DNA from: Strongyloides papillosus
Taxonomy: Eukaryota; Nematoda; Chromadorea; Rhabditida; Strongyloididae
Length of the DNA stretch: 64,000 bases
Assembly (NCBI GenBank): GCA_005656395.1
Contig: SRSI01000079.1
Location: forward strand, 992,001-1,056,000
Direction of reading: 5' to 3'
Numbering within the stretch: the stretch's first letter is position 1; the number at the start of each line of letters is the position of its first letter. Shown piece after piece: positions 1 through 63,038 of this stretch. The notes below the pieces were generated by a model. The model made no database searches and was not told the DNA's origin. It worked only from the letters and a program-made list of their open reading frames with translations. A program made the translations under genes and the position numbers.

Positions 1-569
1 TTAATGAATTTTTGGAAACTCCCAAAATCTTTTTCCGTAAGCTCTTCAATATCCAAAAACTTGATATTTGATCCAATTTTAAAAACACCTTCCAAGATGC
101 CGAAAAATATCAAGATGATCAGCAACATATACATAAAAGTCGAAGAGGTTCCCCATATCAAACATTTTTAAGAAACTAGACAATTCACCAACACTTTTAA
201 TGTTGGTGGTTTTCTGAAAAAAAATTAAGTATTAATGGTCGTCAAAACTATTACCGTGTAGTAAGCCACTGAAACCACCTGTGAATTCTCCCTGTATAAA
301 TTCATCTCGACATGAAATGGATGGCCATCATTATTCTTATCATATTTTATTGCAACACAACATGCCTTTCTCCTATTTAATTGGTGATACTTTTCATTAA
401 TAATATTATAGAATCTCCTTGACACATGTTTTGCAATGTTGATTTCCTTCCAGGAGAGTTTTGATAAGATGATAACAAGAACATCATCAGGGAGTATAGG
501 TGTATCATCATTTACTTCAAAATATTCCTCCTCTATAGTAAAATCCATGTTAAGATTATTAAGATCCAT
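1..569 (-). pseudogene. F-box protein, type 1, copy 1 (3' end off the window; frameshifted)
   Basis: Exon 1 is 255-569 and starts at an ATG followed by an acidic leader and an F-box (LPDDVLVIIL ... VSRRFYNII, about residues 26-60). F-box proteins normally bind Skp1 and supply substrates to SCF ubiquitin ligases. A 41-nt intron (214-254, GTAATAG..TTTCAG) lies at the same phase-0 place as in the two neighbouring paralogues. Exon 2 runs from 213 off the left edge. In a run of five A at 103-107 the reading frame moves by one base relative to the intact paralogue at 3771-4918; with that one base ignored the homology continues to position 1. Either a pseudogene or a consensus indel. The substrate-binding half has no recognised named domain. 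Confidence 0.7.
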
Positions 570-1066
570 AATAAAATTATATCCAAAACAACCCTGAAAA
601 AAAGATATTAATGTGATTGAATCGAAAGAACATTAGGTGAAAATGATTATAAATCAAATTGAGAAATTTCTCAGGTTAACCCTGATGACAACGAGAAGAA
701 CAAATTTAGGTGCATGAAGTGGGGGAAGTATTCATAATTTAATAGGGTTCATTGAATACTGAAACATCGCTACAAGAAAATGACTATTTTATAGTAGTGT
801 AAGTGGTGTGTCAAACGAAAATATTCACTGTTCCGTTTTTTTTATACATCTTTAGCAAAAAGATTTTGAAATCTAAGAACTTTTTTCATTCTATTAAAGA
901 GTATATCAGTCTTTCACTAACCATCCAATATATTACGAAATAATAATGAAGATAGGTATAAAGTAAATTATAAAGAGTAAATAGAAACATCAAACAATCA
1001 TAGATAGTAAACGGTAAAAAGAAATGAAGAGATAAAAATAAGTTGTACATGTATACAAGACTCATT

Positions 1067-1260
1067 CCTCCTCACAATAATAAAATGGATTTTTGATAAT
1101 AACAAAAAAAACATAAATGGGATTCATGAAACAAGTATGACTGATTTCCTAAGCCTCGATAACAACATTGTGATTCTTTACCATATACTGCTTCAGTTGC
1201 GTATTCATTTCAAAATGTATAACAATTCCTTAGATTTAAATACTGAAAATATAACAAATC
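1067..1260 (-). pseudogene. Relic C-terminus of a type-2 F-box gene
   Basis: Reading the minus strand gives a degraded match to the last ~50 residues of the gene at 17706-18798: HTC-(L/F)-(T/M)-N, then VFFVIIK-P-YY near the end, with a stop codon replacing one residue. No F-box exon is attached. The same tail occurs at 3214-3400, so it was carried along in the tandem duplication of the type-1 genes. Confidence 0.6.
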
Positions 1261-1602
1261 AGTTAACATAAAAAACAGAATAAAAATGAGTGACGTAGAT
1301 GTCGTCAGGTGAAACAGCAATAAAATCATCTGCCAAACCAATTTAAATAATACCTGTCAAAAACAATTAAAAAACTTTTTGTTGTTATAGAAGTTTTTCT
1401 TTCGAACTTTTTTATGTAAAACCCGAAACTAATCGAAAAACACCTGGAACACATTTTTTTATTCCTCAAATACCTACTTGCCCTGTGAACAAATTACTTT
1501 GTTATAAGAATGTAGTTTATAAAAAAAACACAACAAAAAGCAAAGAAAAATCAAAAAAATACATATTTAAATAAGAGTTCTTCTGTAAAAGTAAGAATTA
1601 TA

Positions 1603-2720
1603 TTAATGGTCCGATTCATCAAAATAGTACAGATGATTCCATAATCTAATAATTCTCATGATTTTATGCGCCTTTTCGAGACAATTCTTGCAATCTACAT
1701 TAGACCCAAATTCAACATAGTTTCGAAGATTTTGAGAATTAATGGCTTCCTCTACATTCTCGAGTTCATTGAGGCAATTTCTAAAAATATCGCAAAGATA
1801 TTCGATGTCTCCACCATAAAATAAATTAACAGTAATTTGATTGTAATCACATTCATTCTCCATATTACATGGTTGCTCCACTTTAAAATGCTCCTTAAAA
1901 ATACTTTCTAGAAGTTCAATATTCATTGATCCAAAATTCAAAGATTTCATACTTGAATTCTTTTCAAGTAATTTAGTGACAAAATCAGCTGACAAAATCT
2001 TCGTTTCAGGGCATTCAACGACACCTAAAAATTCAATGCTGCCGAAAGATGGTAAAGATAAGAGTGACAAAAAATCCTTCGCTTCTGTTGAAGAGGAACA
2101 TAAATGTGCGATATTAAACCCCTTTATTGACGAAAGTTTACCTATGAAATTTAGGAAACTCGTAAAATCCTTTTCTGCCAGCTTTAAAATACTCATATGT
2201 CCGATGTTTGTTCCTTCTTGAAAAGAGCCGTTCAAGATGCCGAAGATATCAATGTTATCAGCAAAAGGTAAATCAAGATTCCCGATATTTCTCAAATCGA
2301 CTGTATTTAAGAAACTAGATAATTCTCTACTATTTTCAAAACTGCCTTGCCTCTGGAAAAAAAAAGTTGAATAAAAAATAAATGGTCATCAAAACTATTA
2401 CCTTGTAGTCACTTATAAGGGCACCACCTGAATTAAGGTTTATTATTAACCTAAAAGTTACATTGATATGAAATGGATAGCTATCCGTTTCATCATATTC
2501 TATCGAAAGTTCATGTACTTTTCTTCTCTCTAATTTATGGTAATTTTCATGTACAATACCATAAAATCTCTTTGATACTTGCTTTACAACTTGATATCTT
2601 CCAAGGAGAGTTCCTTAAAATGATAACCATAATATCATCGGGAAGTACAGCTGTATCATCTTTTACTTCAAAATATTCCTCCTCTATACTAAAATCCATG
2701 ATAGAATGATTAGGATCCAT
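1603..2720 (-). pseudogene. F-box protein, type 1, copy 2 (two 1-nt deletions in exon 1)
   Basis: Exon 1 is 2402-2720 (ATG at 2720), intron 2353-2401 (49 nt), exon 2 1603-2352. Exon 2 is fully open and encodes a 249-residue C-terminal half with a Cys-Lys-Asn-Cys motif near the end, as in the intact copy. Exon 1 lacks one base in an A run at 2617-2620 and one in a T run at 2591-2592 compared with the copy at 4592-4918; these shift the frame inside the F-box helix and give an early stop. Adding two bases would make the exon 107 codons and the gene 356 codons, close to the intact paralogue (366). Two deletions 25 nt apart in an otherwise well kept gene could be assembly error or recent decay. 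Confidence 0.75.
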
Positions 2721-2759
2721 GATAAAGTAAAAATTATATTTTTAACAAACCTGATAAAA

Positions 2760-3400
2760 AGATATAAATATGATTGGATAGAGACAAAATATAAAAAAGA
2801 TAATTAGAAGTTAAATTAAAAAAGCTCTCACGAAAGATACTGATATCAACAAAAAAAATAAGTCTGGGTAAAAAAAGAATAAAAGTGTTTGCAATTTAAA
2901 AAGGTTTATTAAATTATGAAAGATATTACGAAGGAATGAATGTTTTTTAGTGAGAAATAATGACACGGCAAGCAAAAAGTCGTTGTTTTATTCATTTTTT
3001 TGCACCTATACCAAAGACAATTTTGATATCTTAGAGACATTTTTTATCATTCTATTGAGAATTTACCAGTCTTCAATTAATTATTCAATATATAACAAAA
3101 AAGAAATAAAGATAAGTTTAAGTATATTTCAAAGAGTAAAGTTTATGAACATTTAACAATTACAAATAGCAAGTGACAAAAAAAATTAAGAGATAAAAAT
3201 AAATTAATTATGAACGAAATCCTCATCCCTCATGGTGATAATAGTCTGGATTCTTGGCAATAACAACAAAAAAATTAATCCCATTCGTAAGACAGGTATG
3301 AAAGAGTTTCTGAGCTTTAATCATAATATTGTGATCCTTTACTGGAAAACGCTTCAGTTGACGTTTCTATTTGAGAAAGTTGAACAGTTCTTTAAAGTCA
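2760..3400. repeat. Segmental duplication shared with 17225-17860
   Basis: About 640 bp of upstream flank plus the type-2 F-box tail match 17225-17860 nearly base for base over long stretches, for example the shared run at 3221-3260 and 17700-17740 reading CCCTCATGGTGATAATAGTC. A much more diverged version lies at about 600-1230. This defines the tandem unit of the F-box array. Confidence 0.75.
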
Positions 3401-3631
3401 AATACTAAGAATATAACAAATCATTAATTTATCAATAGAAAAATAATAGAGGCGATTGATGTAGATGTTGCCATTTGAGTTACTAAAAAAAACCTCTGAT
3501 AATGAACTAACGTTATATTTATCAAAATAATTATTAAAAATTTTTTTGTTGATATTGAAATTCTTTATTTTGAATTTTTTATCATGCAAAAGTTGAAAAC
3601 AACCAAAAAACACCTGGTACACCTTTTCCAT
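3214..3631 (-). pseudogene. Relic type-2 F-box tail and adjoining open stretch
   Basis: 3214-3400 on the minus strand encodes an almost intact type-2 tail (IKAQKLFHTCLTNGINFFVV, ending YYHHEG and a stop). Upstream, 3398-3631 stays open for 77 codons but is very Asn/Lys/Phe-rich and has no recognisable domain; the equivalent sequence at about 1240-1480 is not open. I read it as decayed spacer or leucine-rich segment, not a working gene. Confidence 0.5.
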
Positions 3632-3770
3632 TCCTGAATTACATACTTTCTTGTGTAAACAAATAATTTAATATTAAAACATAATTTATTAAAAAAAAAC
3701 ACAATAAATAGTGAAAAAAAAATAAAATATATATTTAAGTGGAAGTTCCTAAGTACGATTAAGAATCATC

Positions 3771-4918
3771 CTAGTGATTCCATTCTTCGTCATCGTCTTT
3801 GTCTTTCATAAAATAATATATGCCAACATATTTCTTGATCCTATGTCTATTTTTAAGACAATTACTACAATCTGATTCAGATCCAAAGATGTATAGTGGT
3901 ATATTTTCACGATTCAAATTAAATGAAATCATTTCTTCTTCTACTACACACTCGAGTTCACCGAAATCATTTGTTAAACTGTTATAAAGACGTTCAATTT
4001 CACCGTAGACAATTAGATTGAGATGAATTTTATCGTGACTACATTCATTCTCCATTTGACGCGGTTGCTCCATTGTAAAATATTCCTTGGAGAGACTCCA
4101 AAGAAATTCAATATTGTATGATCCAATATCAATAGCCATTAAACTTGGACTATTTCTAATAAATTTAACAACAAAATCAGACGCTAAAATCTTCGTTTTA
4201 TTGCACTCAAAGATCATTAAACAATAAATGGTGTTGAAGGATGTCAATGATAGGAGAGAGAAGACATCCTTCTGTCCTGTTGAAGGAGCACATAAATGAT
4301 AGATACAAAGAACCTCGAGCCGTGACAATTTCTCAATAAATGTTCGGAAACTCCCAAAATCCTTTTCCGCAAGCTTCTTTATTACCAAATCGTTAACCTT
4401 TGTTCCTATTTCAAGAACCCCTTCCATGATACCGAAAAGATCAAGATTACCAGCAACTGATAAAATAAGCATGTCGAGTTTCCTTAGATCAAACATCCTT
4501 AGAAAACCAGTCAATTCATCAACACTTTGAATTTTCGTAGACTTCTGAAAAAAAAATTAAATAAAATATTAATGGTCGTTAAAACTATTACCTCATAGAA
4601 AAGCTTTATTTCCTCAAGTAAATAATCAGATGAATTCTCACTGTAGAATTTCATGTGGACAAGAAATGGATGGCTATCACATCTTCCATCATATTCTATC
4701 TCAGCACTGAGTACCTTTCTCCTGTTTAATTTATGATAATTTCTATGGACGATACCATAGAATCTCTTTGATACTTGCTTTACAACTTTGATATCTTCCA
4801 AGGAGAGTTCCTTAAAAATGATGACAAGAACATCATCAGGAAGTACAGATGTATCATCTTCTACATCAAAATATTCATCCTCTATATTAAAATCCATGAT
4901 AGAATTACTAAGATCCAT
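3771..4918 (-). CDS. F-box protein, type 1, copy 3 (intact)
   Basis: The only copy in the array without a break. Exon 1 is 4592-4918 (109 codons), intron 4545-4591 (47 nt, phase 0), exon 2 3771-4544; predicted protein 366 residues. The F-box spans about residues 25-60 (LPDDVLVIIFKELSLEDIKV, then VSKRFYGIV). The remainder is a divergent, probably leucine-rich, substrate-recognition region with a CSNC motif near residue 335. The likely role is a substrate adaptor of an SCF ubiquitin ligase, in cytoplasm or nucleus; the target is unknown. An inverted-repeat element begins only ~36 nt upstream of the ATG, so the original promoter has been cut off or replaced. Confidence 0.8.
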
Positions 4919-5121
4919 GATAAAGTTATAAATTATTTTTTAAACAGACCTGAATAGACATGGGATCCGACCCTGGTCGACCCTTGAAAATGGGTCGACC
5001 CCAAATTTTAGGGTCGATGCAAAATTACAAAAATTCTAGGATCGGTTTTATACTATTCACTGACAACTTTGGAAAATTCATCTGTTAGTGAAATAATAAT
5101 TATCTTTACCATATTTAAAAT

Positions 5122-5217
5122 TGCTAAATGACTACTTTATTGTACAACACGACAACAAAAACTAAATTAGATGACAATTTTTATCTTATTTATGATTATC
5201 AAATTCGTTATAAGACA
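5122..5217 (-). repeat. 3' LTR (96 bp)
   Basis: Identical to 9409-9504. In element orientation it starts TGTCTTATAACG and ends CATTTAGCA. The bases just before it (5218-5240) include GAGGCGGA, at best a weak polypurine tract. The ORF stop lies 29 nt upstream. Confidence 0.92.
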
Positions 5218-5245
5218 TCCGCCTCGGCCTAACGGAAACTGCGTT

Positions 5246-8200
5246 TCAACCTTCAGTGTTACCATGACTGTGCTCATCAGCAACCTTAGAAATCTTTAAG
5301 AAGTTCCTAGGTCCCCACATAACGCGATCAAAATCGTCTTCTTGGAGTTTCCTTGCTATATTGTGAATTTTATGGTGGCGTGCTCTCTCTATGTTATGAC
5401 TTCGTGCTAATGATTTTGCTGTGGACATCGCTGACTGTGAATCACATATTACGGGTATTTCCGAATTCTGTGTCATGGTGAGTGCTACTAATATTGCCTC
5501 AGTCTCCATATCCATATGAGTTAAGTTTTTCTCCAAAGGATTGAATTTCTTGCCCATCGAATACCCTTTTAACCATGTAAATTTTTCTCCATCCTTTATT
5601 GTTACTATTACACTAAATCCAACTGGTGTATTACTGCCATCTACTGCACAAATAATTTTGTGTTCTGACAATTTTTCTTTAGTTAATGCTGCTAGAGATT
5701 CATCAAATTTCTCCACCTCCTCCTCCTGGGCAAGTGGATCTTGATCCGCCAATTCCTTCAGAAGTACCATACGATGCCATAAATAATTTTGGTCCTTATT
5801 CCATTTCTTTGAAAAAACTTGTTCTACCTGTCTCAATAAATTTTCAGGTATTTCTTCAGATGGTTTATTGTCAAATCCAACGGTTATCAAGCATTGAATG
5901 TTAACTGAATTAAATTTCATGGTTGGTGCTGTTGTTGTTAATCGTTCCTTGAATTGGTCTTCCTTTACCATTAAATGGTGGCCTGTTCCTTCGTCTTCTA
6001 CGATAAAGGTGTGCTCTGAAAGACGTTCAAGTAGTTTCCCAGGCTTCCATTCGGATGATGCAGCTGATTTGAAGTATATCGGATCCTCATCATACTGTCT
6101 AGCGAAGACATATGAATTTCCAAACTTATAATTATCCGATGTACCAATTCTGCGTTCTAGTGGTGTTCTTCCTTGAGAGTCATATGTACTAGAATGGTGG
6201 TTTAACAATACCGTGTCCAACATCTCTTTAGAATTTCCTTTTCCTTCCTTATTTGATTTTGCCAACCCTTGTTTGATGGATTTCACTGCTTGTTCAGCTG
6301 GGCCGTTTGAATATGACTCATAGGGGACTGTAAAGACCTGACGAACTCCCTTCTTCAAACAAAAATTCTTTACTGATGTAGACATAAAACTTTTATAGTT
6401 GTCTGAAACTAATATTTGGGGTGTTCCGTTTTCCGCAAACATTTCTCTTAACGCAAAAAGTATTTGATTTGCATCTTGTGTTGCTATTTTCTTTGCCATG
6501 ATAAAATTTGAATTTACATCTACAGCAACTAAATATAACTGGTTTTCTAAACTAGCAACATCCATATGCCATCTTTGGTTTTCCCCCGTTGTTGGTACCC
6601 ATTCTCTCATTTTATAATTCTTCCTTTTATTTACTACTTGGCATATGTGACATTTCTGGTACACTTCTGAAACGTCCTTTCTGATACCTGGAGCCATAAA
6701 AATTTCTCTGATTTTATGCAACATATTTTCTACCGCAAAATGCCCTTCATGAGCCCATTCAGCAATGTCTTTGTAAGCTTTTGGTGGTAGGAGTGGTCTG
6801 CCGAAAACAAAGATTACATTGTCTCTAACCTCCAATCCATTTATGTTGCTGACCATAGATTTTTCATATCTGCTGGTAAAAGGTAGTTTCTCTATTATTT
6901 TTCTTTTTAACGATTCATACTCTTCATCTTCTATTGCTTGTATATCAATTGGAATATCCGGTGTGGAGATAGTTATTTTCTTGATTTCTTTGATTTCCGC
7001 CATCTTTTCCAAAACTTCATCTATCTTTTTCTCAAGCTTCAAATTATAACAGAACATATCACATTCCGCTTTCCAGATTGATATACGTGAAAAATGTGGA
7101 TTTAAATAATTACACTTTTTATTCCAAACACTTACCAGTGAAGCATTAGCTGTTCTGACTTCAGTGACATATGCTTTTGTGTACATATGGAACTTCTCAA
7201 GACCTAATCTAACAGCAAGTGCAGATTTTTCAATAGAGGTATAATTCTTCTCACATTCTGTCAACCCTTTTGAACCCACATTAATTAACTTTTTCTTCAA
7301 CACTTTTGCTGTCTCGGTAGAACGTGGAGTAGACCATAAGGTGAATTTTACTGATTCAAGGGTCCAACCTGTTTCTAAAATTAATTTCTCCTTTTCTGGT
7401 TCAAAATACTCCAAGATCGTTCTTTCCAACAACCTTTCTTTGACTAACTGCCAAACCTTATCTTTTTCTGTCGACCATATGTCTCGCTTATCCATAATTT
7501 TCCGTTCAAACTCTGAACTTTCTTCACCAATGAAATTTCTCAATCTCGAGATTTTTCCTTTTAGCATCAACAATTCTGTCTTGTTCTTTGGTATTGGTGT
7601 TTCCAAGGTCTTTTGGATGGCTTCTGGTGTAGCTCGGATGCCATGACGGGAAATTTCGTATCCTGTATATTCGACAACCTTTTCTCCGAGTATCAGTTTC
7701 TCCTCACTTATCTTTAAGTTATTTTTTCTTAGTTTTTCTAGTACTTGTATGAGAGGTTGTTCATCATCCTCATCATGAAGAATCAAAATATCGTCCATAA
7801 AAGCGATTACTCCCTCAGTGTTACCTAATACACGTTTTAGAGAATTAAAGAATAATACACCTGATTGTGATAATCCGTATACAAGACAGTTTGACTTAAA
7901 ATATCCGAACTCCAGTGCCATCGTGGTCCATTCATTTGTTCTCTCCGAAACCTTAATCAACCTGTAAGCACATCGGCAATCGATCAAACTAAAAACTAAT
8001 TTCTCTTTATTAGGATATTCGGATATTTTCTTTTGGAGCTCCAATAACGGTGGTAATTCTAGTGGAATGTGTGCGAAATTTGAATTTATAAATGAGCCAT
8101 CAATACACAAACGAATTTCTCCATTCTTCTTAGGAACTGCTGTTACTGGGCAAGCTTGCTTTGGAAACTTTACCTCCACCATATTCCCATTTTTTACTTC

Positions 8201-9409
8201 ATTTAGCACAAATTGCCTCGTCATTTCCCGTAAACTAGCTTCCATTTTTCTAGGTCTACACACCTTCCGAATTAAGGGACCTTCATTGAGCACGTAGTCG
8301 ACTTCTATCTTTTTATCTTTCGGAATTGATTCATCGTAAATCTCCGGGTAAGTTTCTAGGTAACTTTTAATGGAGTTGAAATTTGTTTTGATAGGTGTCG
8401 CTACTTTTCTACAGGCATTTTCTAAAGTTCCAAATAGTTGAATAAAGGTTCCTGGATCAAGTAATAATTCTTCTTCTCTCATGACCACGCACCTTAAATT
8501 TTCAACTGATCCGACAGGTCCACGGACTGTTAGCTTAATGAATCCTTCTGCCTTTAATTTAGCACCTCCCGGTCCAGTTAGCTGGACTGGAAGCTCTTCG
8601 AGAACTGGTTTATCCAACTCTTCCCAGATATGCCATGGAATCACTGTAACGTCTGCCTTCGTGTCCAGTACTCCCTCTGTCGACAAGACATGATCATTTA
8701 CTTCCAACTTGATGGGCTTAGGTTCTATGACGACTTGGTAGGAAGAACGGTCATCAAAAGTTGAACATATTTTTTTAACCCCCTTAGCCTCATTTTCCTT
8801 TTTCCACTTTTTTTCACCTTCCAGTCTTGGACACTCGGCCTTGCGATGACCTTCCGCTTTACATATAAAGCACCTAAAGCTTCCTTTCTCATCCTCTCTC
8901 CCATTAAAAAGCTTCAACGTTTTAGCTGTTGTAATCAATTCCCCTGTTGTCAACATTTTGTTCTCGATAAATCCCACTTTAGCCCTCTTTGAACAACACA
9001 AAATCAATTTAACTTGTAACAATAATTCTCTGGTGGACAGCTTCAAAAACTCTTTTGGAACACTCAGTATGAATTCGTTTAAGAAATCTTCAATACCTTC
9101 TCTCCCCCATTCATAACGACTCAACAATGCCGACACAAATCTATTATACAGTGTAGTTTGAATTTCATCGTGTAAAATTTTCTTCTGCATATTTTCTAAA
9201 GTCCATTCCTCTACATCTGCACCCATAATTTCTTCCAATAGCTCACATTCCTCAGCATCTAGCTGATTTATGATATTCATGACCGCTTGCCTCTCGGTCT
9301 CCTTCTTCTCCTCCTCTTTTGTAAACTTTAGCTTCAAGATCTCCCTTGCTATCAAGTCCTTCATTGGGCTTTTTCTCTCCGCGTTACCGGATCTCGTCCC
9401 AAACGCCAT
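5246..9409 (-). CDS. Gag-Pol polyprotein of the LTR retrotransposon, 1387 aa
   Basis: Domain order by residue: Gag-like N-terminus 1-170; CCHC zinc knuckle C180-C183-H188-C193; retropepsin near D249 (motif DTK instead of DTG/DSG); reverse transcriptase ~390-590 with FMDD at 537-540; degenerate RNase H ~675-760 (ETGW and TANAS where active enzymes have TDAS and TDH); integrase with H887-H890-C920-C923 zinc site and D950, D1003, E1039; then a second RNase H ~1250-1387 with D1257 (DGS), E1302 or E1304, D1323 and D1378. The product would copy element RNA into DNA in cytoplasmic particles and integrate it. No internal stop or frameshift. Start chosen because it is the first ATG after transcription could begin in the LTR. 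Confidence 0.93.
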   Translation of the reverse strand: MAFGTRSGNAERKSPMKDLIAREILKLKFTKEEEKKETERQAVMNIINQLDAEECELLEEIMGADVEEWTLENMQKKILHDEIQTTLYNRFVSALLSRYEWGREGIEDFLNEFILSVPKEFLKLSTRELLLQVKLILCCSKRAKVGFIENKMLTTGELITTAKTLKLFNGREDEKGSFRCFICKAEGHRKAECPRLEGEKKWKKENEAKGVKKICSTFDDRSSYQVVIEPKPIKLEVNDHVLSTEGVLDTKADVTVIPWHIWEELDKPVLEELPVQLTGPGGAKLKAEGFIKLTVRGPVGSVENLRCVVMREEELLLDPGTFIQLFGTLENACRKVATPIKTNFNSIKSYLETYPEIYDESIPKDKKIEVDYVLNEGPLIRKVCRPRKMEASLREMTRQFVLNEVKNGNMVEVKFPKQACPVTAVPKKNGEIRLCIDGSFINSNFAHIPLELPPLLELQKKISEYPNKEKLVFSLIDCRCAYRLIKVSERTNEWTTMALEFGYFKSNCLVYGLSQSGVLFFNSLKRVLGNTEGVIAFMDDILILHDEDDEQPLIQVLEKLRKNNLKISEEKLILGEKVVEYTGYEISRHGIRATPEAIQKTLETPIPKNKTELLMLKGKISRLRNFIGEESSEFERKIMDKRDIWSTEKDKVWQLVKERLLERTILEYFEPEKEKLILETGWTLESVKFTLWSTPRSTETAKVLKKKLINVGSKGLTECEKNYTSIEKSALAVRLGLEKFHMYTKAYVTEVRTANASLVSVWNKKCNYLNPHFSRISIWKAECDMFCYNLKLEKKIDEVLEKMAEIKEIKKITISTPDIPIDIQAIEDEEYESLKRKIIEKLPFTSRYEKSMVSNINGLEVRDNVIFVFGRPLLPPKAYKDIAEWAHEGHFAVENMLHKIREIFMAPGIRKDVSEVYQKCHICQVVNKRKNYKMREWVPTTGENQRWHMDVASLENQLYLVAVDVNSNFIMAKKIATQDANQILFALREMFAENGTPQILVSDNYKSFMSTSVKNFCLKKGVRQVFTVPYESYSNGPAEQAVKSIKQGLAKSNKEGKGNSKEMLDTVLLNHHSSTYDSQGRTPLERRIGTSDNYKFGNSYVFARQYDEDPIYFKSAASSEWKPGKLLERLSEHTFIVEDEGTGHHLMVKEDQFKERLTTTAPTMKFNSVNIQCLITVGFDNKPSEEIPENLLRQVEQVFSKKWNKDQNYLWHRMVLLKELADQDPLAQEEEVEKFDESLAALTKEKLSEHKIICAVDGSNTPVGFSVIVTIKDGEKFTWLKGYSMGKKFNPLEKNLTHMDMETEAILVALTMTQNSEIPVICDSQSAMSTAKSLARSHNIERARHHKIHNIARKLQEDDFDRVMWGPRNFLKISKVADEHSHGNTEG

Positions 9410-9504
9410 GCTAAATGACTACTTTATTGTACAACACGACAACAAAAACTAAATTAGATGACAATTTTTATCTTATTTATGATTATCAAATTCGTTATAA
9501 GACA
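9409..9504 (-). repeat. 5' LTR (96 bp), must hold the promoter
   Basis: Identical to 5122-5217. Its final A (9409) is the A of the ORF start codon. The next bases in element orientation are TGG, the usual start of a primer-binding site complementary to a tRNA CCA end, so the primer site would lie inside the first codons of the ORF. Confidence 0.92.
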
Positions 9505-9958
9505 AAAATATTAGTTCTGAAATTAGTATTGGCCATTTTTGGAGTTCAGTAAAGTTATCAGCACCTAATTTACATAGTTAATTATCAAAAATTAAGAATA
9601 ATAAAGTCAACTAACATCAAATCTGAGAGTTCAATGCTATTATATATTAGAAATTGTCGACGAACTAATTTAACTACTAAGAATTTGAACAATTTATTAG
9701 TTTGAAAGAATAATTTATATATTGTAATATTTTTAATTATAGAAAATTTTCTTTAAATATAATAAAATTATGTTTTTTACAGGGATATATGTTACTAGTT
9801 TAACGGGTCGATTTTAAAAAGCGACCCTAAACCGACCGACCCTGGGTCGAAAAATTTACCGACCCGCCTATGTCTAGTTAAAAATGATGAAAAAAAAATT
9901 TTATTGTAAATAATTATTGAAGAAAATGTTTTATTTTTTTGATATATTATTTTTTTAT

Positions 9959-16096: not shown

Positions 16097-17179
16097 TTAA
16101 GAAACATTTTTACTGATTCTGCATATCCAGCTTCTAATTTCATCGTTGATACAAGTTGTACAATCTGTAAAAGATTCAGATTCGGCTATTAATCGGACAT
16201 GTATTTTTTTTTAAAAATTCCGAATTCTTTTACATTCCCCAGTTCGTTGAGACTATTTTTTAAAATATTGTAAAGATATTTGGGTTTACCGATGGATTGT
16301 GGAACAATATCAATTTCAATATGATCACATTCACTCTTCATTTGACGTGATTGTTCCATTGTAGAGAATTCTTTGAAAACACTCTCTAAAAATCCAATGT
16401 TTTTTGATTCAAAATGCATATTTTGTATATTCGGATTATTTCTGAGTAATTTAGAAACAATAGCACCTGACAGAATCTTCGATTTTTTGCATTTATAGAT
16501 GAAAAGAGTTCTGATGGTACTGAAGGATGTCAGTGATAGGAGAGAGAAGACATCCTCTGGTCCTGCTGAGGGAGCACATAAATTAAAAATAAAAAGACTC
16601 TTGACTGACGATAATTTCTCAATGAATTTTCGAAAACTTCCAAAATTCTTTTCCGCAAGCTCTCTAATAGTCAAAGCGTCGATCTTTGTTTATTTTTGAA
16701 AAATCCCCTTCAATATGTCGAAAATATTGAGATGATCAGGAACATTTACAGCAAATTTGTTGAGGTCCCCTATGTCAAACATTTTAAAGAAAACAGACAA
16801 TTCTTTAGCACTTTGAAAGTTGGTAGTTTTCTGAAAAAGAAAAATTAGAAAAAATATTAATTATCACCAAAACTATTACCGCGTAGTTAGATTGAATGAC
16901 ATGCGAGGTTATGCCTTCCGCACTCTCAAAATTCATCTTGACATGAAACGGCTGTCTAACACAATTTCTACAATATCTTATCAAAAGTTCATCTACCTTT
17001 CTTCTCTCTAATCTATGGTAATTTCTATGAACGACACCATAGAATCTCTTTGATACCAGCTTTAAATTGTTGATATCCATCCAGTTGAGTTCTGAAAAGA
17101 TAAGAAGAAGAGCATCATCAGAAATTTCAGATGTATAATCTTGTACTTTCAAACATTTCTCTTCCATAATAAAACTCAT
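16097..17179 (-). pseudogene. F-box protein, type 1, copy 4 (nonsense codon plus frameshift)
   Basis: Exon 1 16880-17179 (100 codons) has a good F-box (ISDDALLLIFSELNWMDINN, then VSKRFYGVV); intron 16831-16879 (49 nt); exon 2 from 16830. Codon 47 of exon 2 is TAA (16690-16692) where the intact copy has a sense codon. Further down a nine-T run (16204-16212) shifts the frame; beyond it the homologous C-terminus continues to a stop at 16097-16099, including a DC-TTC motif matching the family Cys pair. The nonsense change is a substitution, so this copy is more securely dead than the others. Confidence 0.75.
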
Positions 17180-17224
17180 GATACTTAAAATAAGGCCATG
17201 GTAGAATGATAATTGTATTCAAAA

Positions 17225-17860
17225 AAATCCTGAAATAAAAGTATATAAATATGATTTGATAGAGAGAAAATATAGGAAATATAATTGGAAATAAAATTAA
17301 GAAAGCTTTAATGGAAAATATTGATATCAATTGAGAGAATAAATTGAGGTGAAAAAAATAAGAAAGTGTTCGCGATTTAACAAGGTTTATTGGATTATGA
17401 ATGACGATTACGGAGGAATGAATATATTATAGTGATTATAGTGGGGTATCAAACAAAAAGAGTCATTGTTTTATTCATTTTTTACACCTATACAAAAGAA
17501 AAATTTGATATTTTAGAGACTTTTTTTAATCATTCTATTGACAGTTTGTCGGTCTTCTATTGACTATCCAATACTTGACAAAAAGAAAATAAAAATAGGT
17601 TTAAGAATATTTTAAAGAGTAAAGTTTATGAACATTTAACAATTACAAATAGCAAATGAAAAAAAAAATTAAGAGATAAAAATAAATTAATTATGTACGA
17701 AATCCTCATCCCTCATGGTGATAATAGTCTGGATCCTTGACAATAACAACAAAAACATTAATCCAATTCGTGAGACAGGTATGACAAAGTTTCTGAGCTT
17801 CAATCAAAATATTAGTTTCAGAATATTCAAAGGAGTACAAACTCCTGGTAGCTTGAAAGT
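17225..17860. repeat. Segmental duplication shared with 2760-3400
   Basis: Upstream flank of the copy-4 type-1 gene and the tail of the type-2 gene, closely matching 2760-3400. Here the tail is still attached to a full type-2 gene, which suggests this end of the array is the source of the relic tails. Confidence 0.7.
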
Positions 17861-18798
17861 TTCTAAAAACAGCTCTAATAATACTTCTGAAATCACCATT
17901 TGCTTCGGTTGTCTTGAGAAGCAATTCAATACTGCTGTGATTGCAAACTGGATTCTCATCTTCATTTCTACTGTTCATGAAGGCGGTGGAGAGACGTGTG
18001 AGGAGTGCTTCATTTTTTGTTGAAATATTTATATCATTTAGAAGTGGGTTATTGTTGTATAAATTGGAAATGAATGTATCATTAAGAAATCTTCTACTCC
18101 CACATTCTGAGAAATCAACTCTTTTTAGTGTTGTCATTGATGATAAGTCCAAATTTGTGAATATTCTATCACCAAAAGATCCCGTACAGATACTTCTGAT
18201 TTCCAATCGCTCTGTATTTTTAGTGTTCCTTATAAATGTTGAGAAAGTTTCCAGAATCATAATATGAAAGTCCATGAACAGAGATAAATCGAATGCTTGA
18301 TCCTCTATTGAAACATCTATTTAGAGTATCAAATATTTCTATATCACGGAATCCATGTACATAAAACCCATAGAAGTTATCTGTGATAAATAACTTCAAA
18401 CATCTACAAAGTTCCTCTTTGTCAAAAATATCTAACTGAAAAGTTTTTGATATGTAAAAAAGTAGAATAAATATAAAACTTACTCTTCGATACCTGTTGA
18501 AAACATGTGGACTATTGTTGGTACCTGGATAGAATACAGTTAAATCCACTAAATTAAATCCTCTCCTTCCATAATTAGAGATGTAAACTTGATGAACTGG
18601 AGTCTTTTTCATAAGGTGAGTGTTGTATTCAATGAGATTATAGAATCTTCTACATGTCTTTTTAATATTAACGATATCTTTTAGTGAATTCATAGAAAAT
18701 ATATAGGTAAGGATTTCATCTGGGAGTAATTCAATATCTGAAATAGATTCGAGACCATCCTCATGAATCTCTTGCGTTTCAGCGATACCACTATCCAT
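17706..18798 (-). pseudogene. F-box protein, type 2 (one-base frameshift; possibly functional)
   Basis: Exon 1 18484-18798 begins MDSGIAETQE and holds an F-box (LLPDEILTYIFSMNSLKDIV, then CRRFYNLI, about residues 25-60). A 48-nt intron (18436-18483) is a multiple of three without stops, so it can be misread as coding. Exon 2 is 17706-18435. Around 18244-18246 (AAA on plus) the frame moves by one: the upstream frame stops at 18220 and the downstream frame carries on to 17706, ending YYHHEG. Alignment with the type-1 proteins shows both frames belong to one protein. A pseudogene or a one-base consensus error. Confidence 0.7.
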
Positions 18799-46394: not shown

Positions 46395-49300
46395 AATCCC
46401 AAAATATATTAGAGGAGTAATGAGGATGTGTAAATTATTTTCGATATTGAAACTTTTTTATATCTTTATATATGTAACTTTATGTGCTGATTTCAAAAAA
46501 CACAATATTTTTTTAATCTGAAGTCCCGTTCTTGAGATACAGCTACTTAAAGGTGTTTTGGTGTGTTAGTCTTGACCCCCTTAGAGTTATTCGTTCTATC
46601 TGAAATTTTACAGGTATATATAGTTCTAGATGCTAATAAAACAAAAATAAAAAAAAAGTTAAAATTTCAAGTTCATTCTTGAGATTTTGGATTTTTTCCA
46701 AAATGACCAAAAAAAACCTAAATTCTTACATTTTAAAATGATATATCAGGATTCAGAGAAGAAAATCAAAAAAAAGAAAAAAAGCTATCCTAAGTTTCTC
46801 TTTAACTTACATTTTGAGTATAATCCCAAGAAAATCGAAAAACTTTAAGTACTATAAAATCGTTTTAGAAAATTTTTGAAAAAAAATGTTTTGAAAAAAA
46901 TTTTTTGTGTTTTTTTAAAAAAAGCATGTCAAGATGAAACTCTTTTGGTGAAGTGGTTTTACAACTTTTATGTAGAATAAAATTTTCTATCAAATGAGAT
47001 ATATATCGAACTGATACATTTTGTCGTTCTTGAGATATAAAGAAAAAAGTAATTTTTGTATATTTAAAAAAAGTGCATTTTTTGGATTTCAAGAACGTAA
47101 AAAAGTTTCAATACGTTGATTTTCTTAAAAAATCGCAAAAAGTTGCCCTGGGGAATTTTGTTACGAACATTTTAAGATATTAACCGTTAATTTATCTCTA
47201 TTTATTCTTGAGATAATCTCAAAGTAAATGGAGCAATTTTTTTTTCAACTTTTTAGAGTTTTTAAAAAAAGTATCTAAAGATGAATTTTTCTCAATATAA
47301 AATGTTAACAAAATTTTTGTGGAATTTAATTCTCTATCGAATGACATATAGATCGTCTTAATCCCATTATCTGTTCTCGAGATACATCTCATTAAGTACC
47401 AAATTCTGAAATTCGGTACCTCTATTTTTCCGTCAATACAGATTTTTTTACTCAAAATTTCACATATAGACGTAATTTTAATGCTTATTACATGCAAACT
47501 ACAAAATTTACCAAAAAAGTCCGATCCCGAAAATAGAAAGTCATCGGAAATTCCCCCTATCTTTGAAGAAAAGTTTACCTCTTTAAATGATTTTTGTTAA
47601 ATGCACTCTTTTTTATTAAAATAGAAATGCATTTTAATGTGCTCGATAGAAAAAATAAATATTAGATTCATTTGAATTTTTGCTCTTGAGATACGTCTAT
47701 TTAAATGAGAATAATCTTGAAATGTTGTGATCCCCTAAAACTTTTTAAAAATGATCCTAATAACTAGAAATTTCACAGGTACGTCAATTTCTTATGGTTG
47801 TTATATATAAACAATAAAATTTACAAAAAAGTCCGATCCCAGAAAATAGTAAGTCATCGAAAATTCCTCTATATCTCAGAGAAAAAGTTTACTTCTTAAA
47901 TGGTTTTGGTTATATGCACTTTTTTACTAAAATAAAAATGTATTTTAAATATGTTGAACAGAAAAATAAATATTAGCTTCATTTGAATTTTTGCACTTTA
48001 AATACATCTACTTCAGTAAGAATAATATTAAAATTTGTAATCTCCTTAAAATAAAAAATTACAAGAACAACTAATTCTTTGAAAGGAAAACAAAAAACAA
48101 CAATTCATCAAAGTCATTGGATTAATTGTTTTAAACAATTTTAAATATCAATTTATATTTTTAAGAACATAGTGGATAAAATAAGTGGAAAAATTGGTTT
48201 TTATTTAATTATATGTAATTTTTGTGCCGATTAAGATGTTTTTTAATCAGTGCAATATATGATATATGAAAATTATTAAGATATGATAAAAAAAATTAAA
48301 ATCAAATTATATTTGGCTTTTTGAGATTTAACAAAATTTTCATTAAATATCATTTATTCTAGAATAGAATAAGTTTTTTTATCTAAGTCTTTTATGTTAA
48401 AATGATCTAAACTAGATTGTCTCAAAATACCGCAATCTAGCCACGCATTTTAAAAATTTTGAAAAAATGTTTACAAATTTATGATAAAGCGATGCACATA
48501 CTTATTTTTAAAAAAATGTAAAAATATCTAAAAGTTTTGCTATGCTTTATAAGAACTGGATAAAAAAGTTACCTAAAATTCTAAGTTGAAACTATTCATC
48601 AAAACATTTTAAAAGTAAATTTTATAATATTTTATTAAAAAAATTCATCAATACTTTGATTTTAATATATTTATATTTTTTTAAAGTCTATATAAATTTT
48701 TTACTACGAAAAGTGTCTGAGTAATTGTTTTGATTTATTTTTAATCTTATCAATTTAGAGAAATATTTTTATCATTTTGAATACATTAAAAATTTGCGTT
48801 CTTATTTTTATAATACATTTTAAAAAGTTTTGTCAAAAAAATATAAAACAAAATAAAAAATATGCATTAAATTTGTAAAAGTACTTTTTATTATGCAACC
48901 AAAATGCGAAATTATAAAATAACAATCGCAAAAATTGGATTATTTTAGGTTAAATAATTATGAAATACTTATGATCAACCTCAAATATTATTAATATTTT
49001 AAAAAATTAGCCAGACTTAATATTAATCTCTATTTTTAATTTTTATCATATTAATTAACTTAAAACTTGCATATTAACACTAATCAGAAGTCTAACGTAA
49101 ACATTGTTCTTAATTTTTTATTTTTATATTAAAAATTCGTAAAAAATTATTCAAACTTAGAATATCAAATGAATTTAAAATCATGAGGATATATAATAAA
49201 ACAATTTTGATGAAGTATGTTTTATAAGCTTTTAATGTTCAAAAACCCATAAAATTTTAATAATAATTATTTATATTATAAAATACAAAAATGTTACTTG

Positions 49301-60152: not shown

Positions 60153-63038
60153 AATCCCAAAATATATTAGAGGAGTAACGAGGATGTGTAAATTATTTTC
60201 GATATTGAAACTTTTTTATATCTTAATATATGTAACTTTATGTGCTGATTTCAAAAAACGCAATATTTTTTTAATCTGAAGTTCCGTTCTTGAGAAACAG
60301 CTACTTAAAGGTGTTTTGGTGTGTTAGTCTTAACCCCCTTAGAGTTATTCGTTTTATCTGAAATTTTACAGGTATATATAGTTTTAGATACTAATAATAT
60401 AAAAATAAAAAAAAGTTAAAATTTCAAGTTCATTCTTGAGATTTTGGATTTTTTCCAAATTGACCAAAAAAAACCTAAATTCTTACATTTTAAGATGATA
60501 TATCAGGATTCAGAGAAGGAAATTGAAAAAAAGAAAAAAAGTTAATCTAAGTTTCTCTTTAACTTACATTTTAAGTATAATCCCAAGAAAATCGGAAAAC
60601 TTTAAGTAGTATAAAATCGTTTTGGAAAATTTTTGAAAAAAAATGTTTTGAAAAAAATTTTTTGTGTTTTTTTAAAAAAAGCATGTCAAGATGAAACTTT
60701 TTTGGTGAAGTGGTTTTACAACTTTTATGTAGAATAAAATTCTCTATCAAATGAGATATATATCGAACTGATACATTTTGTCGTTCTCGAGATATAAAGA
60801 AAAAAGTAATTTTTGTATATTTAAAAAAAGTGCATTTTTTGGATTTCAAGAACGTAAAAAAGTTTCAATACGTTGATTTTCTTAAAAAATCGCAAAAAGT
60901 TGCCCTGGGGAATTTTGTTACGAACATTTTAAGATATTAACCGTTAATTTATCTCTATTCATTCTTAAGATAATCTCAAAGTAAATGGATCAATTTTTTT
61001 TTCAACTTTTTAGAGTTTTTAAAAAAAGTATCTAAAGATGAAATTTTCTCGATATAAAATATTAACAAAATTTATGTGGAATTTAATTCTCTATCGAATG
61101 ACATATAGGTCGTCTTAATCCCATTATCTGTTCTCGAGATACATCTCATTAAGTACCAAATTCTGAAATTCGGTACCTCTATTTTTCCGTCAATACAGAT
61201 TTTTTTACTCAAAATTTCACATATAGACGTAATTTTAATGCTTTTTACATGCAAACTACAAAATTTACCAAAAAAGTCCGATCCCGAAAATAGTAAGTTA
61301 TCGGAAATTCCCCCTATCTTTGAAGAAAAGTTTACCTCTTTAAATGATTTTTGTTAAATGCACTCTTTTTTATTAAAATAAAAATGCATTTTAATGTGCT
61401 CGATAGAAAAAATAAATATTAGATTCATTTGAATTTTTGCTCCTGAGATACGTCTATTTATATGATAATAATCTTGAAATGTTGTGATCCCCTAAAACTC
61501 TTAAAAAATAATCCTAATAACTAGAAATTTCACAGGTACATCAATTTCTTATGGTTGTTATATATAAACAATAAAATTTACAAAAAAGTCCGATCCCAGA
61601 AAATAGTAAGTCATCGGAAATTCCCCTAAATCTCAGAGGAAAAGTTTACTTCTTAAATGGTTTTGGTTATATGCACTTCTTTATTAAAATAAAAATGTAT
61701 TTTAAATATGTTGAACAGAAAAATAAATATTAGCTTCATTTGAATTTTTGCACTTGAGATAAATCTACTTCAATAAGAATAATATTAAAATTTGTAATCT
61801 CCTCAAAATAAAAAATTACAAGAACAACTAATTCTTTGAAAGGAAAACAAAAATTCATAAAAGTCATTGGATTAATTGTTTTAAACAATTTTAAATATCA
61901 ATTTATATTTTTAAGAACATAGTAAATAAAATAAGTGGAAAGATTGGTTTTTATTTAATTATATATAATTTTTGTGCCGATTAAGATTTTTTAAATCAGT
62001 GCAATATATGACAATTATTAAGATAAGATAAAAAAAATTAAAATCAAATTATATTTGGCTTTTTGAGATTTAACAAAATTTTTGTTAAATATCATTTATT
62101 CTAGAATAGAATAGATTTTGTCCTCTAAATCTTTTTATGTTTAAATAATCTAAACTAAATTGTCTCATAATACCGCAATCTAGCCACGCATGTAAAAAAT
62201 TTTGAAAAAATGTTTACAAATTTATGATAAAGCGATGCATATACTTATTTTTAAAAAAATATAGAAATATCTAAAACTTTTGCTATGCTTTATAAGAACT
62301 GGAAAAAAAAGTTACCTAAATTTCTAAGTCGAAACTATTCATCAATGCATTTTAAAAGTAAATTTTATAATATTTTATTAAAAAAATTCATCAATACTTT
62401 GATTTAAATATATTTATATTTTTTTAAAGTCTATATAAATTTTTTACTACGAAAAGTGTCTGAGTAATTGTTTTGATTTATTTTTAATCTTATCAATTTA
62501 GAGAAATATTTTTATCATTTTAAATACATTAAAAATTTGCGTTCTTATTTTTATAATACATTTTAAAAAGTTTTGTCAAAAAAATATAAAACAAAATAAA
62601 AAATATTCATTAAATTTGTAAAAGTATTTTTTATTATGCAACCAAAATGCGAAATTATAAAATAACAATCGCAAAAATTGGATTATTTTAGGTTAAATAA
62701 TTATGAAATACTTATGATCAACCTCAAATATTATTAATATTTTAAAAAATTAGCCAGACTTAATATTAATCTCTATTTTTAATTTTCATCATATTAATTA
62801 ACTTAAAACTTGCATATTAACACTAATCAGAAGTCTAACGTAAACATTGTTCTTAAATTTTTATTTTTATATTAAAAATTCGTAAAAAATTATTCAAACA
62901 TAGAATATCAAATGAATTTAAAATCATGAGGATATATAATAAAACAATTTTGATAAAATATGTTTTATAAGCTTTTACCGTTCAAAAAAGTCCAGCCCTG
63001 CGGGCAAGCAGCGACGAGCGAAGCGAGGCTGCGGCTTG
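60153..63038. repeat. Interspersed repeat family, copy 3 (2.89 kb)
   Basis: Very similar to copy 2 across its length, with two ~310-bp internal units (near 61275 and 61589) and a single GC-rich foldback at the right end (62995-63038). Not coding: the open frames it contains differ between copies in length and are rich in Lys, Phe and Ser. Confidence 0.92.

What the first reader, a model, noticed from the sequence alone, without database searches (positions are those of the whole stretch)
7000..9409. LTR retrotransposon with a dead internal RNase H and a second, intact-looking RNase H after the integrase
The RNase H that follows the reverse transcriptase (residues ~675-760) has ETGW and TANAS where the catalytic aspartates should be (TDAS, TDH). 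A separate domain at ~1250-1387, after the integrase, has all four RNase H carboxylates: D1257 (DGS), E1302/E1304, D1323 (CDS) and D1378 (VADEH). Dual RNase H with decay of the first is known for retroviruses (connection domain) and some plant and oomycete elements; a C-terminal, post-integrase position in a nematode gypsy-like element looks unusual and may be an independent capture.
Basis: partly seen in the sequence, partly recalled or inferred. Interest (0 to 1): 0.8.

Follow-up and report, generated by a model that had tools for sequence, protein, structure and literature searches.

The report
Roundworm retrotransposon with relocated RNase H
A roundworm jumping gene has lost the active-site residues of its original RNA-removing enzyme domain, RNase H, and carries a second RNase H-like domain with all four active-site acids at the far end of its protein, behind the integrase; this second domain was probably captured from a cellular-type enzyme and likely took over the job, as happened separately in the ancestors of retroviruses.

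Summary
Confirmed and enlarged. Window 5122-9504 (minus strand) is an intact Ty3/gypsy-type element: identical 96-bp LTRs, 5-bp target duplication, one 1387-codon frame ordered gag-PR-RT-RNH-INT-RNH. The native RNase H keeps its predicted fold (RT+RNH pLDDT 87.8; best structural matches XMRV and Ty3 RT) but has no carboxylate at the four aligned catalytic columns (G680, S729, A754, K). The C-terminal domain carries D1257, E1302, D1323, D1378. Alone it scores only weakly as RNase H, but the host genome (nematode; 99% match to a Strongyloides papillosus protein) settles it: 55 RNase_H hits, two of them cellular-looking, and in 20 of 20 fetched polyprotein frames an RNase H (one cut short) lies behind the integrase; 48 of 49 aligned domains keep DEDD. 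Native decay goes with it: third aspartate in 0 of 22 dual elements, 22 of 22 controls. RT (97/89) and integrase (100/99) trees put the dual elements on one side of one branch; the extra domains group with cellular RNase H, not native Ty3/gypsy RNase H (100/100). Best reading: one old capture of a cellular-type RNase H behind integrase, then decay of the native domain into a tether. Dual RNase H is known; this position and a nematode host were not found in my searches.

The parts
9505..9509 (.). target-site duplication AAAAT, 5' side of the element
   Evidence: identical to 5117-5121
9409..9504 (-). 5' LTR, 96 bp, TG...CA
   Evidence: 100% identical to 5122-5217
9392..9408 (-). predicted tRNA primer binding site, starts TGG directly after the LTR; the start codon ATG is formed by the last A of the LTR plus TG of this site
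   Evidence: sequence; tRNA not identified
5246..9409 (-). single gag-pol open frame, 1387 codons plus stop, no internal stop
8828..8875 (-). CCHC zinc knuckle, residues 179-194 (gag)
   Evidence: Pfam zf-CCHC E 0.0069, 16.9 bits, below its cut-off of 20.8
8630..8677 (-). protease motif region, residues 245-260, LDTKADVTVIP (DTK where DTG/DSG is usual)
   Evidence: sequence; no Pfam hit; usual motif recalled
7652..8137 (-). reverse transcriptase, residues 425-586, FMDD at 537-540
   Evidence: Pfam RVT_1 E 5e-13
6992..7477 (-). native RNase H, residues 645-806: predicted fold kept; catalytic columns read G680, S729, A754 and K
   Evidence: Pfam RT_RNaseH_2/RT_RNaseH E 1e-9 to 6e-9; alignment; model
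6623..6787 (-). integrase zinc-binding domain H2C2, residues 875-929
   Evidence: Pfam E 3e-12
6317..6586 (-). integrase core, residues 942-1031
   Evidence: Pfam rve E 1.8e-13
5249..5662 (-). second RNase H, residues 1250-1387, with D1257, E1302, D1323, D1378
   Evidence: family alignment, tree, profile; Pfam RNase_H alone E 0.018, below cut-off
5218..5229 (-). position of the plus-strand primer, GGCCGAGGCGGA; a poor polypurine tract
   Evidence: sequence next to the 3' LTR; function inferred
5122..5217 (-). 3' LTR, 96 bp
5117..5121 (.). target-site duplication AAAAT, 3' side of the element

Best explanation
This is an intact, apparently recently inserted Ty3/gypsy-type LTR retrotransposon of a nematode, probably Strongyloides, whose own RNase H has lost its active-site residues and whose RNase H function is likely supplied by a second, cellular-type RNase H-like domain at the C-terminus, behind the integrase. 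Shown by sequence: the domain order, the loss at the native active site, the DEDD set of the second domain, and the same arrangement in 20 other polyprotein frames of the genome. Inferred from trees: one acquisition in the ancestor of this element clade, from a cellular-type (fungal/metazoan, RNase H1-like) source and not by duplication of the native domain. Predicted: the native domain keeps the RNase H fold and serves as a tether that holds the template-primer, like the connection domain of retroviral RT. Inferred and untested: in the particle the C-terminal domain, as an integrase-RNase H fusion or after release by the protease, degrades the RNA strand and cuts the plus-strand primer, so that RNase H cleavage is no longer physically coupled to the polymerase by neighbouring domains.
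Against: No activity was measured. The window's own copy of the second domain is among the most diverged: below the Pfam cut-off, no PDB relative by sequence, subclade vs cellular RNase H by profile not significant (1.3%), leave-out profile 16.1 bits on the piece but 11.3 on the whole protein, and 8.1 and 6.9 on L032 and L033, below the best shuffle (11.8), AlphaFold model poor (pLDDT 47.7), Foldseek without significant match, and the active-site His is N1369. Monophyly of the C-terminal domains on their own tree is weak (67/26), so more than one capture is not excluded. Some within-family pairs show more nonsynonymous than synonymous change per site. The protease triad is altered (DTK), so how the polyprotein is cut is unclear. 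Strong-native and RNase_H hits were compared only for the best 150 of 420 candidates.
Confidence: 0.85

Rival explanations
1. The C-terminal domain is RNase H-like in fold but has been repurposed (for example as an integrase tail that binds nucleic acid) and the element borrows host RNase H.
For: Window subclade lost the active-site His and is highly diverged.
Against: DEDD kept in 48 of 49 domains across 26 clusters; pooled pN/pS 0.39; native domain decayed in all 22. PMC5348765 (parts 1-3 of 5 read) states that LTR elements need their own RNase H because reverse transcription is cytoplasmic.
Confidence: 0.1
2. The second domain arose by duplication of the element's own Ty3/gypsy RNase H.
For: Profile similarity of the C-terminal family to native domains is detectable (91.2%, E 1e-6), and the window subclade is nearer to native (48.6%) than to cellular profiles (1.3%) in the same test.
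Against: Native domains stand apart from C-terminal plus cellular ones, 100/100; for the other C-terminal domains similarity to cellular RNase H is far higher (99.8%, E 3.8e-30); active-site His in 41 of 49.
Confidence: 0.03
3. A chance or annotation artefact: the element is fused to or read into a neighbouring gene, or two elements are nested.
For: Only one full copy of this family was found in the genome.
Against: Domain lies inside one open frame between the LTRs and recurs in 20 other frames, 16 of them with a convincing flanking LTR pair, and in P0004, named S. stercoralis.
Confidence: 0.01
4. The RNase H was captured more than once, or from another retroelement (a LINE or BEL/Pao element) and not from the host gene.
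For: C-terminal group only 67/26 on its own tree; LINE, BEL and retroviral RNases H were not in the tree.
Against: RT and INT trees each need one change, which makes one acquisition the simplest history.
Confidence: 0.3

Closest known systems
Plant Tat LTR retrotransposons (dual RNase H; PMC10508981, parts 1 and 2 of 3 read)
   Same: Extra RNase H in a Ty3/gypsy element with tether-like decay of the native domain whatever the position of the extra one.
   Different: [quoted passage not shown] none of the five is described as behind the integrase.
Oomycete Chronos and Archon elements (PMC5348765, parts 1-3 of 5 read)
   Same: Independent capture with loss of native catalytic residues.
   Different: Archaeal-type domain placed next to the native one; Chronos has a chromodomain, not an RNase H, behind INT.
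Odin elements of sea anemones, and retroviruses/lokiretroviruses (PMC9040795, abstract and found passages read; PMC10508981)
   Same: Cellular fungal/metazoan-type RNase H acquired, native domain turned into a tether; Odin, like this element, has no env gene.
   Different: New RNase H sits next to the tether; here it is separated from it by about 440 residues that include the integrase.
Ty1/copia elements (recalled)
   Same: RNase H at the C-terminal end of Pol.
   Different: There the order is INT-RT-RNH with one native RNase H; here RT and a decayed RNase H precede INT.

Membership tests
Ty3/gypsy (Metaviridae) | RT followed by RNase H followed by integrase in Pol | tested here: met
   with an extra domain behind
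Ty3/gypsy (Metaviridae) | RT most similar to Ty3/gypsy RT | tested here: met
   best PDB hits by sequence Ty3 Gag-Pol, E 4.4e-27, and Ty3 RT, E 1.1e-20, ahead of a caulimovirus polyprotein, E 1.2e-11; Ty3/gypsy-type Pfam sets. The RT tree held no Copia, BEL or retroviral rows, so the exact place was not tested
Ty3/gypsy (Metaviridae) | LTRs TG...CA and short target duplication | tested here: met
   96-bp identical LTRs, AAAAT
type I RNase H (C-terminal domain) | DEDD catalytic set | tested here: met
   window has all four; 48 of 49 in the group
type I RNase H (C-terminal domain) | sequence profile above curated cut-off | tested here: not met
   window copy 15.7 bits vs cut-off 25.8; 55 places elsewhere in the genome are over the cut-off, among them 18 of the 20 fetched relatives. 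Membership of the window copy rests on homology to those, not on this cut-off
type I RNase H (C-terminal domain) | RNase H fold | tested here: inconclusive
   [not shown]
fungal/metazoan-type RNase H (fmRNH) | His at the fifth active-site position | tested here: inconclusive
   H in 41 of 49, but N in the window subclade
archaeal-type RNase H (aRNH) | Arg at that position | tested here: inconclusive
   no R in that column among 49 rows, but the window subclade has R1368 one residue before it, so a shift by one is possible there; archaeal rows were not in the tree
dual-RNase H LTR elements (Tat structure 1, Odin, retrovirus arrangement) | extra RNase H directly next to the decayed native one | tested here: not met
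   extra domain lies behind INT in the window and in 20 of 20 relatives
dual-RNase H LTR elements (Tat structure 1, Odin, retrovirus arrangement) | native RNase H catalytically decayed | tested here: met
Retroviridae | env gene | tested here: not met
   one frame fills the element; its stop codon at 5246-5248 lies 28 bp from the 3' LTR
RNase H activity in reverse transcription | cleaves RNA/DNA hybrid | not testable with these tools
   needs a biochemical assay

The most novel reading that the evidence does not exclude
Nematodes evolved their own, fifth or so, independent version of the retrovirus trick: a whole clade of Strongyloides LTR elements (26 domain clusters seen at 70% identity, 25 of them in one genome) swapped its RNase H for a captured cellular-type enzyme mounted on the tail of the integrase, so that RNA removal is done by an integrase-borne or free enzyme acting in trans, showing that polymerase and RNase H need not be neighbours on one RT polypeptide and that tether formation does not depend on adjacency.
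Probability: 0.55. Interest if true: 0.78.

Novelty: new variant of a known kind. Interest (0 to 1): 0.66.

Why it matters
Acquisition of an extra RNase H with decay of the native one is described as a hallmark of the step from LTR retrotransposon to retrovirus, and its recurrence is not yet understood (PMC10508981). A separate animal lineage in which the new enzyme sits behind the integrase is a natural experiment: it helps to separate 'redundancy makes the native domain decay' from 'a neighbouring RNase H needs a tether', because here decay occurred although the two domains are far apart. It also predicts an integrase-RNase H fusion or a free RNase H in the particle, which can be tested directly. 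Locally, the two database copies that bear a name are called only 'RNA-directed DNA polymerase', so the second enzyme does not show in those names.

Tried and rejected
Copia order (INT before RT), suspected at first from the C-terminal RNase H, was rejected by Pfam. Archaeal-type RNase H, suspected from the window's 'PRN' motif, is disfavoured because most relatives carry His there. E1304 as the catalytic Glu was rejected. E727 as a surviving native Glu was rejected: it is two residues off the catalytic column.

Led nowhere: PDB by sequence for the window domain; AlphaFold of the C-terminal domain, too shallow an alignment, and Foldseek on it; NCBIfam (RNase HI, E 0.026, to the P0003 piece only) and PHROGs (RNase H, E 0.0048, to the P0003 piece; an unknown family, E 0.0044, to the window piece); protein-database search with the L014 C-terminal region, 3366 candidates and none at E <= 1, so outside the host genome I have only P0002, P0003 and P0004; the tRNA primer was not identified.

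Rows left out before counts: RT tree without P0016, P0020, P0026 (left out as short or partial) and P0002, P0004 (near copies); the second RT tree dropped further rows, 14 of 22 dual rows kept; RNase H tree and the 49-row count without L003, L004 (same sequence as L018) and L031, L040, L059, L065, L066, L067 (cut short), with L001 and L064 as cellular rows. Of 55 RNase_H hits, 2 look cellular (L001, L064), 18 were fetched with wide flanks, 2 were held as 3.4-kb loci (L003, L004) and 33 as the domain alone; so position behind INT was examined in 18 of 53 element-type hits plus the 2. For 7 others an integrase hit stands 0.9-1.7 kb upstream on the same strand, read by eye. The L031 domain lacks its end. 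My native-RNase H profile found 17 of the 20 frames; L015, L018 and L019 were missed and placed by alignment. Of 20 loci, an LTR pair was found in 17 (that of L020 doubtful, 76% with gaps); 9 of the other 16 pairs are 100% identical.
Full report
What is there. The window carries, on the minus strand, an LTR retrotransposon at 5122-9504. Its two 96-bp LTRs are identical and begin TG and end CA; it is flanked by AAAAT on both sides. One frame of 1387 codons fills it. Pfam finds RT (425-586), native RNase H (645-769), integrase zinc finger (875-929) and integrase core (942-1031); the best solved relative is Ty3 Gag-Pol (E 4.4e-27). The host is a nematode, probably Strongyloides: a protein named as S. 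papillosus is 99% identical over the C-terminal region searched and 100% over the RT-RNH region, and the window belongs to a 58.2-Mb assembly without a name.

C-terminal domain. By itself the window copy is weak: Pfam RNase_H E 0.018, below cut-off, no RNase H in the PDB by sequence, poor AlphaFold model (pLDDT 47.7). The low-confidence model nevertheless orders its elements as b1-b2-b3-helix-b4-helix-helix-b5-helix, with D1257 in the first strand, E1302 in the first long helix after the strands, D1323 at the end of the fourth strand and D1378 in the last helix. The proof comes from relatives. Searching the host genome with Pfam RNase_H gives 55 places, all over the cut-off, 22 of them in open frames of 1304-1524 codons; searching with the window domain gives itself, two relatives at 32% identity, E 7.5e-13 and 9.5e-13, in 1416-codon frames, and two short fragments. 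I fetched 20 loci with wide flanks (18 of the 55, and these two relatives). In 20 of 20 the frame holds RT and integrase, and the RNase H lies behind the integrase near the C-terminus, cut short in L031. L014's domain matches human RNase H1 first among PDB chains (E 4.3e-6). The window subclade (window, P0003, L032, L033) matches the other C-terminal domains by profile comparison at 96.7%, E 3.2e-10; two other parts of the same polyproteins give 0.1%; the other C-terminal domains match cellular RNase H at 99.8%, E 3.8e-30, and native RNase H at 91.2%, E 1e-6. The window subclade against cellular RNase H directly is not significant (1.3%), against native 48.6%. A profile without the subclade gives the window's C-terminal piece 16.1 bits; the best of 2000 shuffles is 11.8; on the whole protein the same stretch gets 11.3, and L032 and L033 get 8.1 and 6.9, so these are tied in through the subclade comparison and their aligned residues and not by that profile alone.

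Conservation. In 49 C-terminal domains the four columns are D 48 (one E), E 49, D 49, D 49; the His column is H 41, N 4, K 3, D 1, with N in the window and L032. They form 26 clusters at 70% identity, one of them P0003. P0003 is unnamed, but its last 149 residues are identical to those of P0004, named S. stercoralis. Over one pair from each of 13 families pN/pS is 0.39 (pS 0.033, pN 0.013), although several copies sit in short frames. Single pairs vary: L014/L038, the L020 group and L028/L052, for example, have more nonsynonymous than synonymous change per site.

Mutual exclusion. In 22 dual elements (20 loci, window, P0003) the native columns keep D1 in 2 (L019, L028), E in 7, D3 in 0, D4 in 1. 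Conversely, none of the 150 best native-type RNase H hits in the genome (of 420 candidates) is followed within 3.5 kb on its strand by an RNase_H hit. Native decay wherever the extra RNase H sits is reported for plant Tat elements (PMC10508981, parts 1 and 2 of 3 read).

History. Dual elements are one side of one branch in the RT tree (63 rows, 97/89), in a smaller RT tree without the long rows (52 rows, 14 dual, 97/92) and in the integrase tree (47 rows, 22 dual, 100/99). These trees are unrooted and the clade is internally very diverse, so the capture is probably old. In the RNase H tree (75 rows) native Ty3/gypsy domains separate from C-terminal plus cellular ones at 100/100; the C-terminal domains form one group only weakly (67/26). 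So 'not a duplicate of the native domain' is well supported, 'captured once' is supported by RT and INT and not resolved by the domain itself, and the exact donor is open, because LINE, BEL, retroviral and archaeal rows were not included.

Activity of the clade. Of 20 loci, 16 have convincing LTR pairs of 94-299 bp, 9 of them 100% identical. The window LTR has three further 100% identical copies, at places where searches show no coding part, two at 87-89%, and two at 79% beside the fragments on C66. Several of these insertions look recent.

How it likely works. Reverse transcription in a Ty3/gypsy particle needs RNase H to remove the RNA strand and to cut the plus-strand primer (recalled). The native domain would not do this by the known metal-dependent mechanism, since its acids are gone; its predicted fold suggests it still holds the hybrid, as the tether does. 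The C-terminal domain has the acids. It would act either as a tail of integrase or after release; I favour the fusion acting within the RT-integrase complex of the particle, because the window subclade's protease triad is altered (DTK; DTR in P0003 and P0004; DTM in L032/L033; DSG or DSC in ten of the other 18 frames, no match to my pattern in eight), but cleavage sites were not searched for and this step is inference.

Known or new. Extra RNase H with decay of the native one is known in retroviruses and lokiretroviruses, Odin (PMC9040795), Tat (PMC10508981) and Chronos/Archon (PMC5348765). In the parts I read the extra domain is next to the native one, upstream of RT, in a separate upstream ORF, or doubled; none is behind the integrase. 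Searches (listings only, apart from the three papers named) showed no title or abstract start about a nematode element with dual RNase H. The library lacks most subscription papers, so absence from print is not established. I file this as a new variant of a known kind.

Noticed in passing
window 9392-9411; L015, L019, L024, L027, L029, L032, L033: The start codon appears to be formed at the junction of the 5' LTR and the primer binding site (CA|TGG), so the first residues of Gag (MAFGTRS, MAPP, MGAQP) are encoded by the primer binding site.
   Followed up: partly
window 8630-8677; P0003, P0004; L032, L033: The aspartic protease triad reads DTK, DTR or DTM in the window's subclade, while ten of the other 18 dual frames have DSG or DSC.
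   Followed up: partly
window 5122-5217 and 9409-9504: LTRs of only 96 bp; three more 100% identical copies stand at C35:291841, C26:755015 and C26:434438, apparently solo LTRs.
   Followed up: partly
window 5218-5229: The sequence where a polypurine tract is expected contains three C (GGCCGAGGCGGA), so plus-strand priming may be unusual.
   Followed up: no
window 225-4939 and 16189-18798: A family of repeated genes with F-box-like starts (LPDDVLVIIL...) on the minus strand; the element is inserted beside it. F-box label is recalled, not tested.
   Followed up: no
window 47219-47596 and 61072-61353: Two nearly identical minus-strand open frames (QKSFKEVNFSSKIGGISD...) 14 kb apart, unidentified.
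   Followed up: no
L001 1339-1887 (host genome C22) and L064 (C30): L001 holds what looks like the host's own cellular RNase H1 gene with a short intron; L064 holds part of a second RNase H1-like sequence.
   Followed up: partly
P0009 (protein database): A protein labelled Salmonella enterica looks like a plant Tat polyprotein with extra RNase H and decayed native RNase H; probably contamination.
   Followed up: no
P0002 (database model of the same gene): The public S. papillosus gene model lacks ten residues (around 373-382) present in the open frame here, probably a false intron.
   Followed up: no
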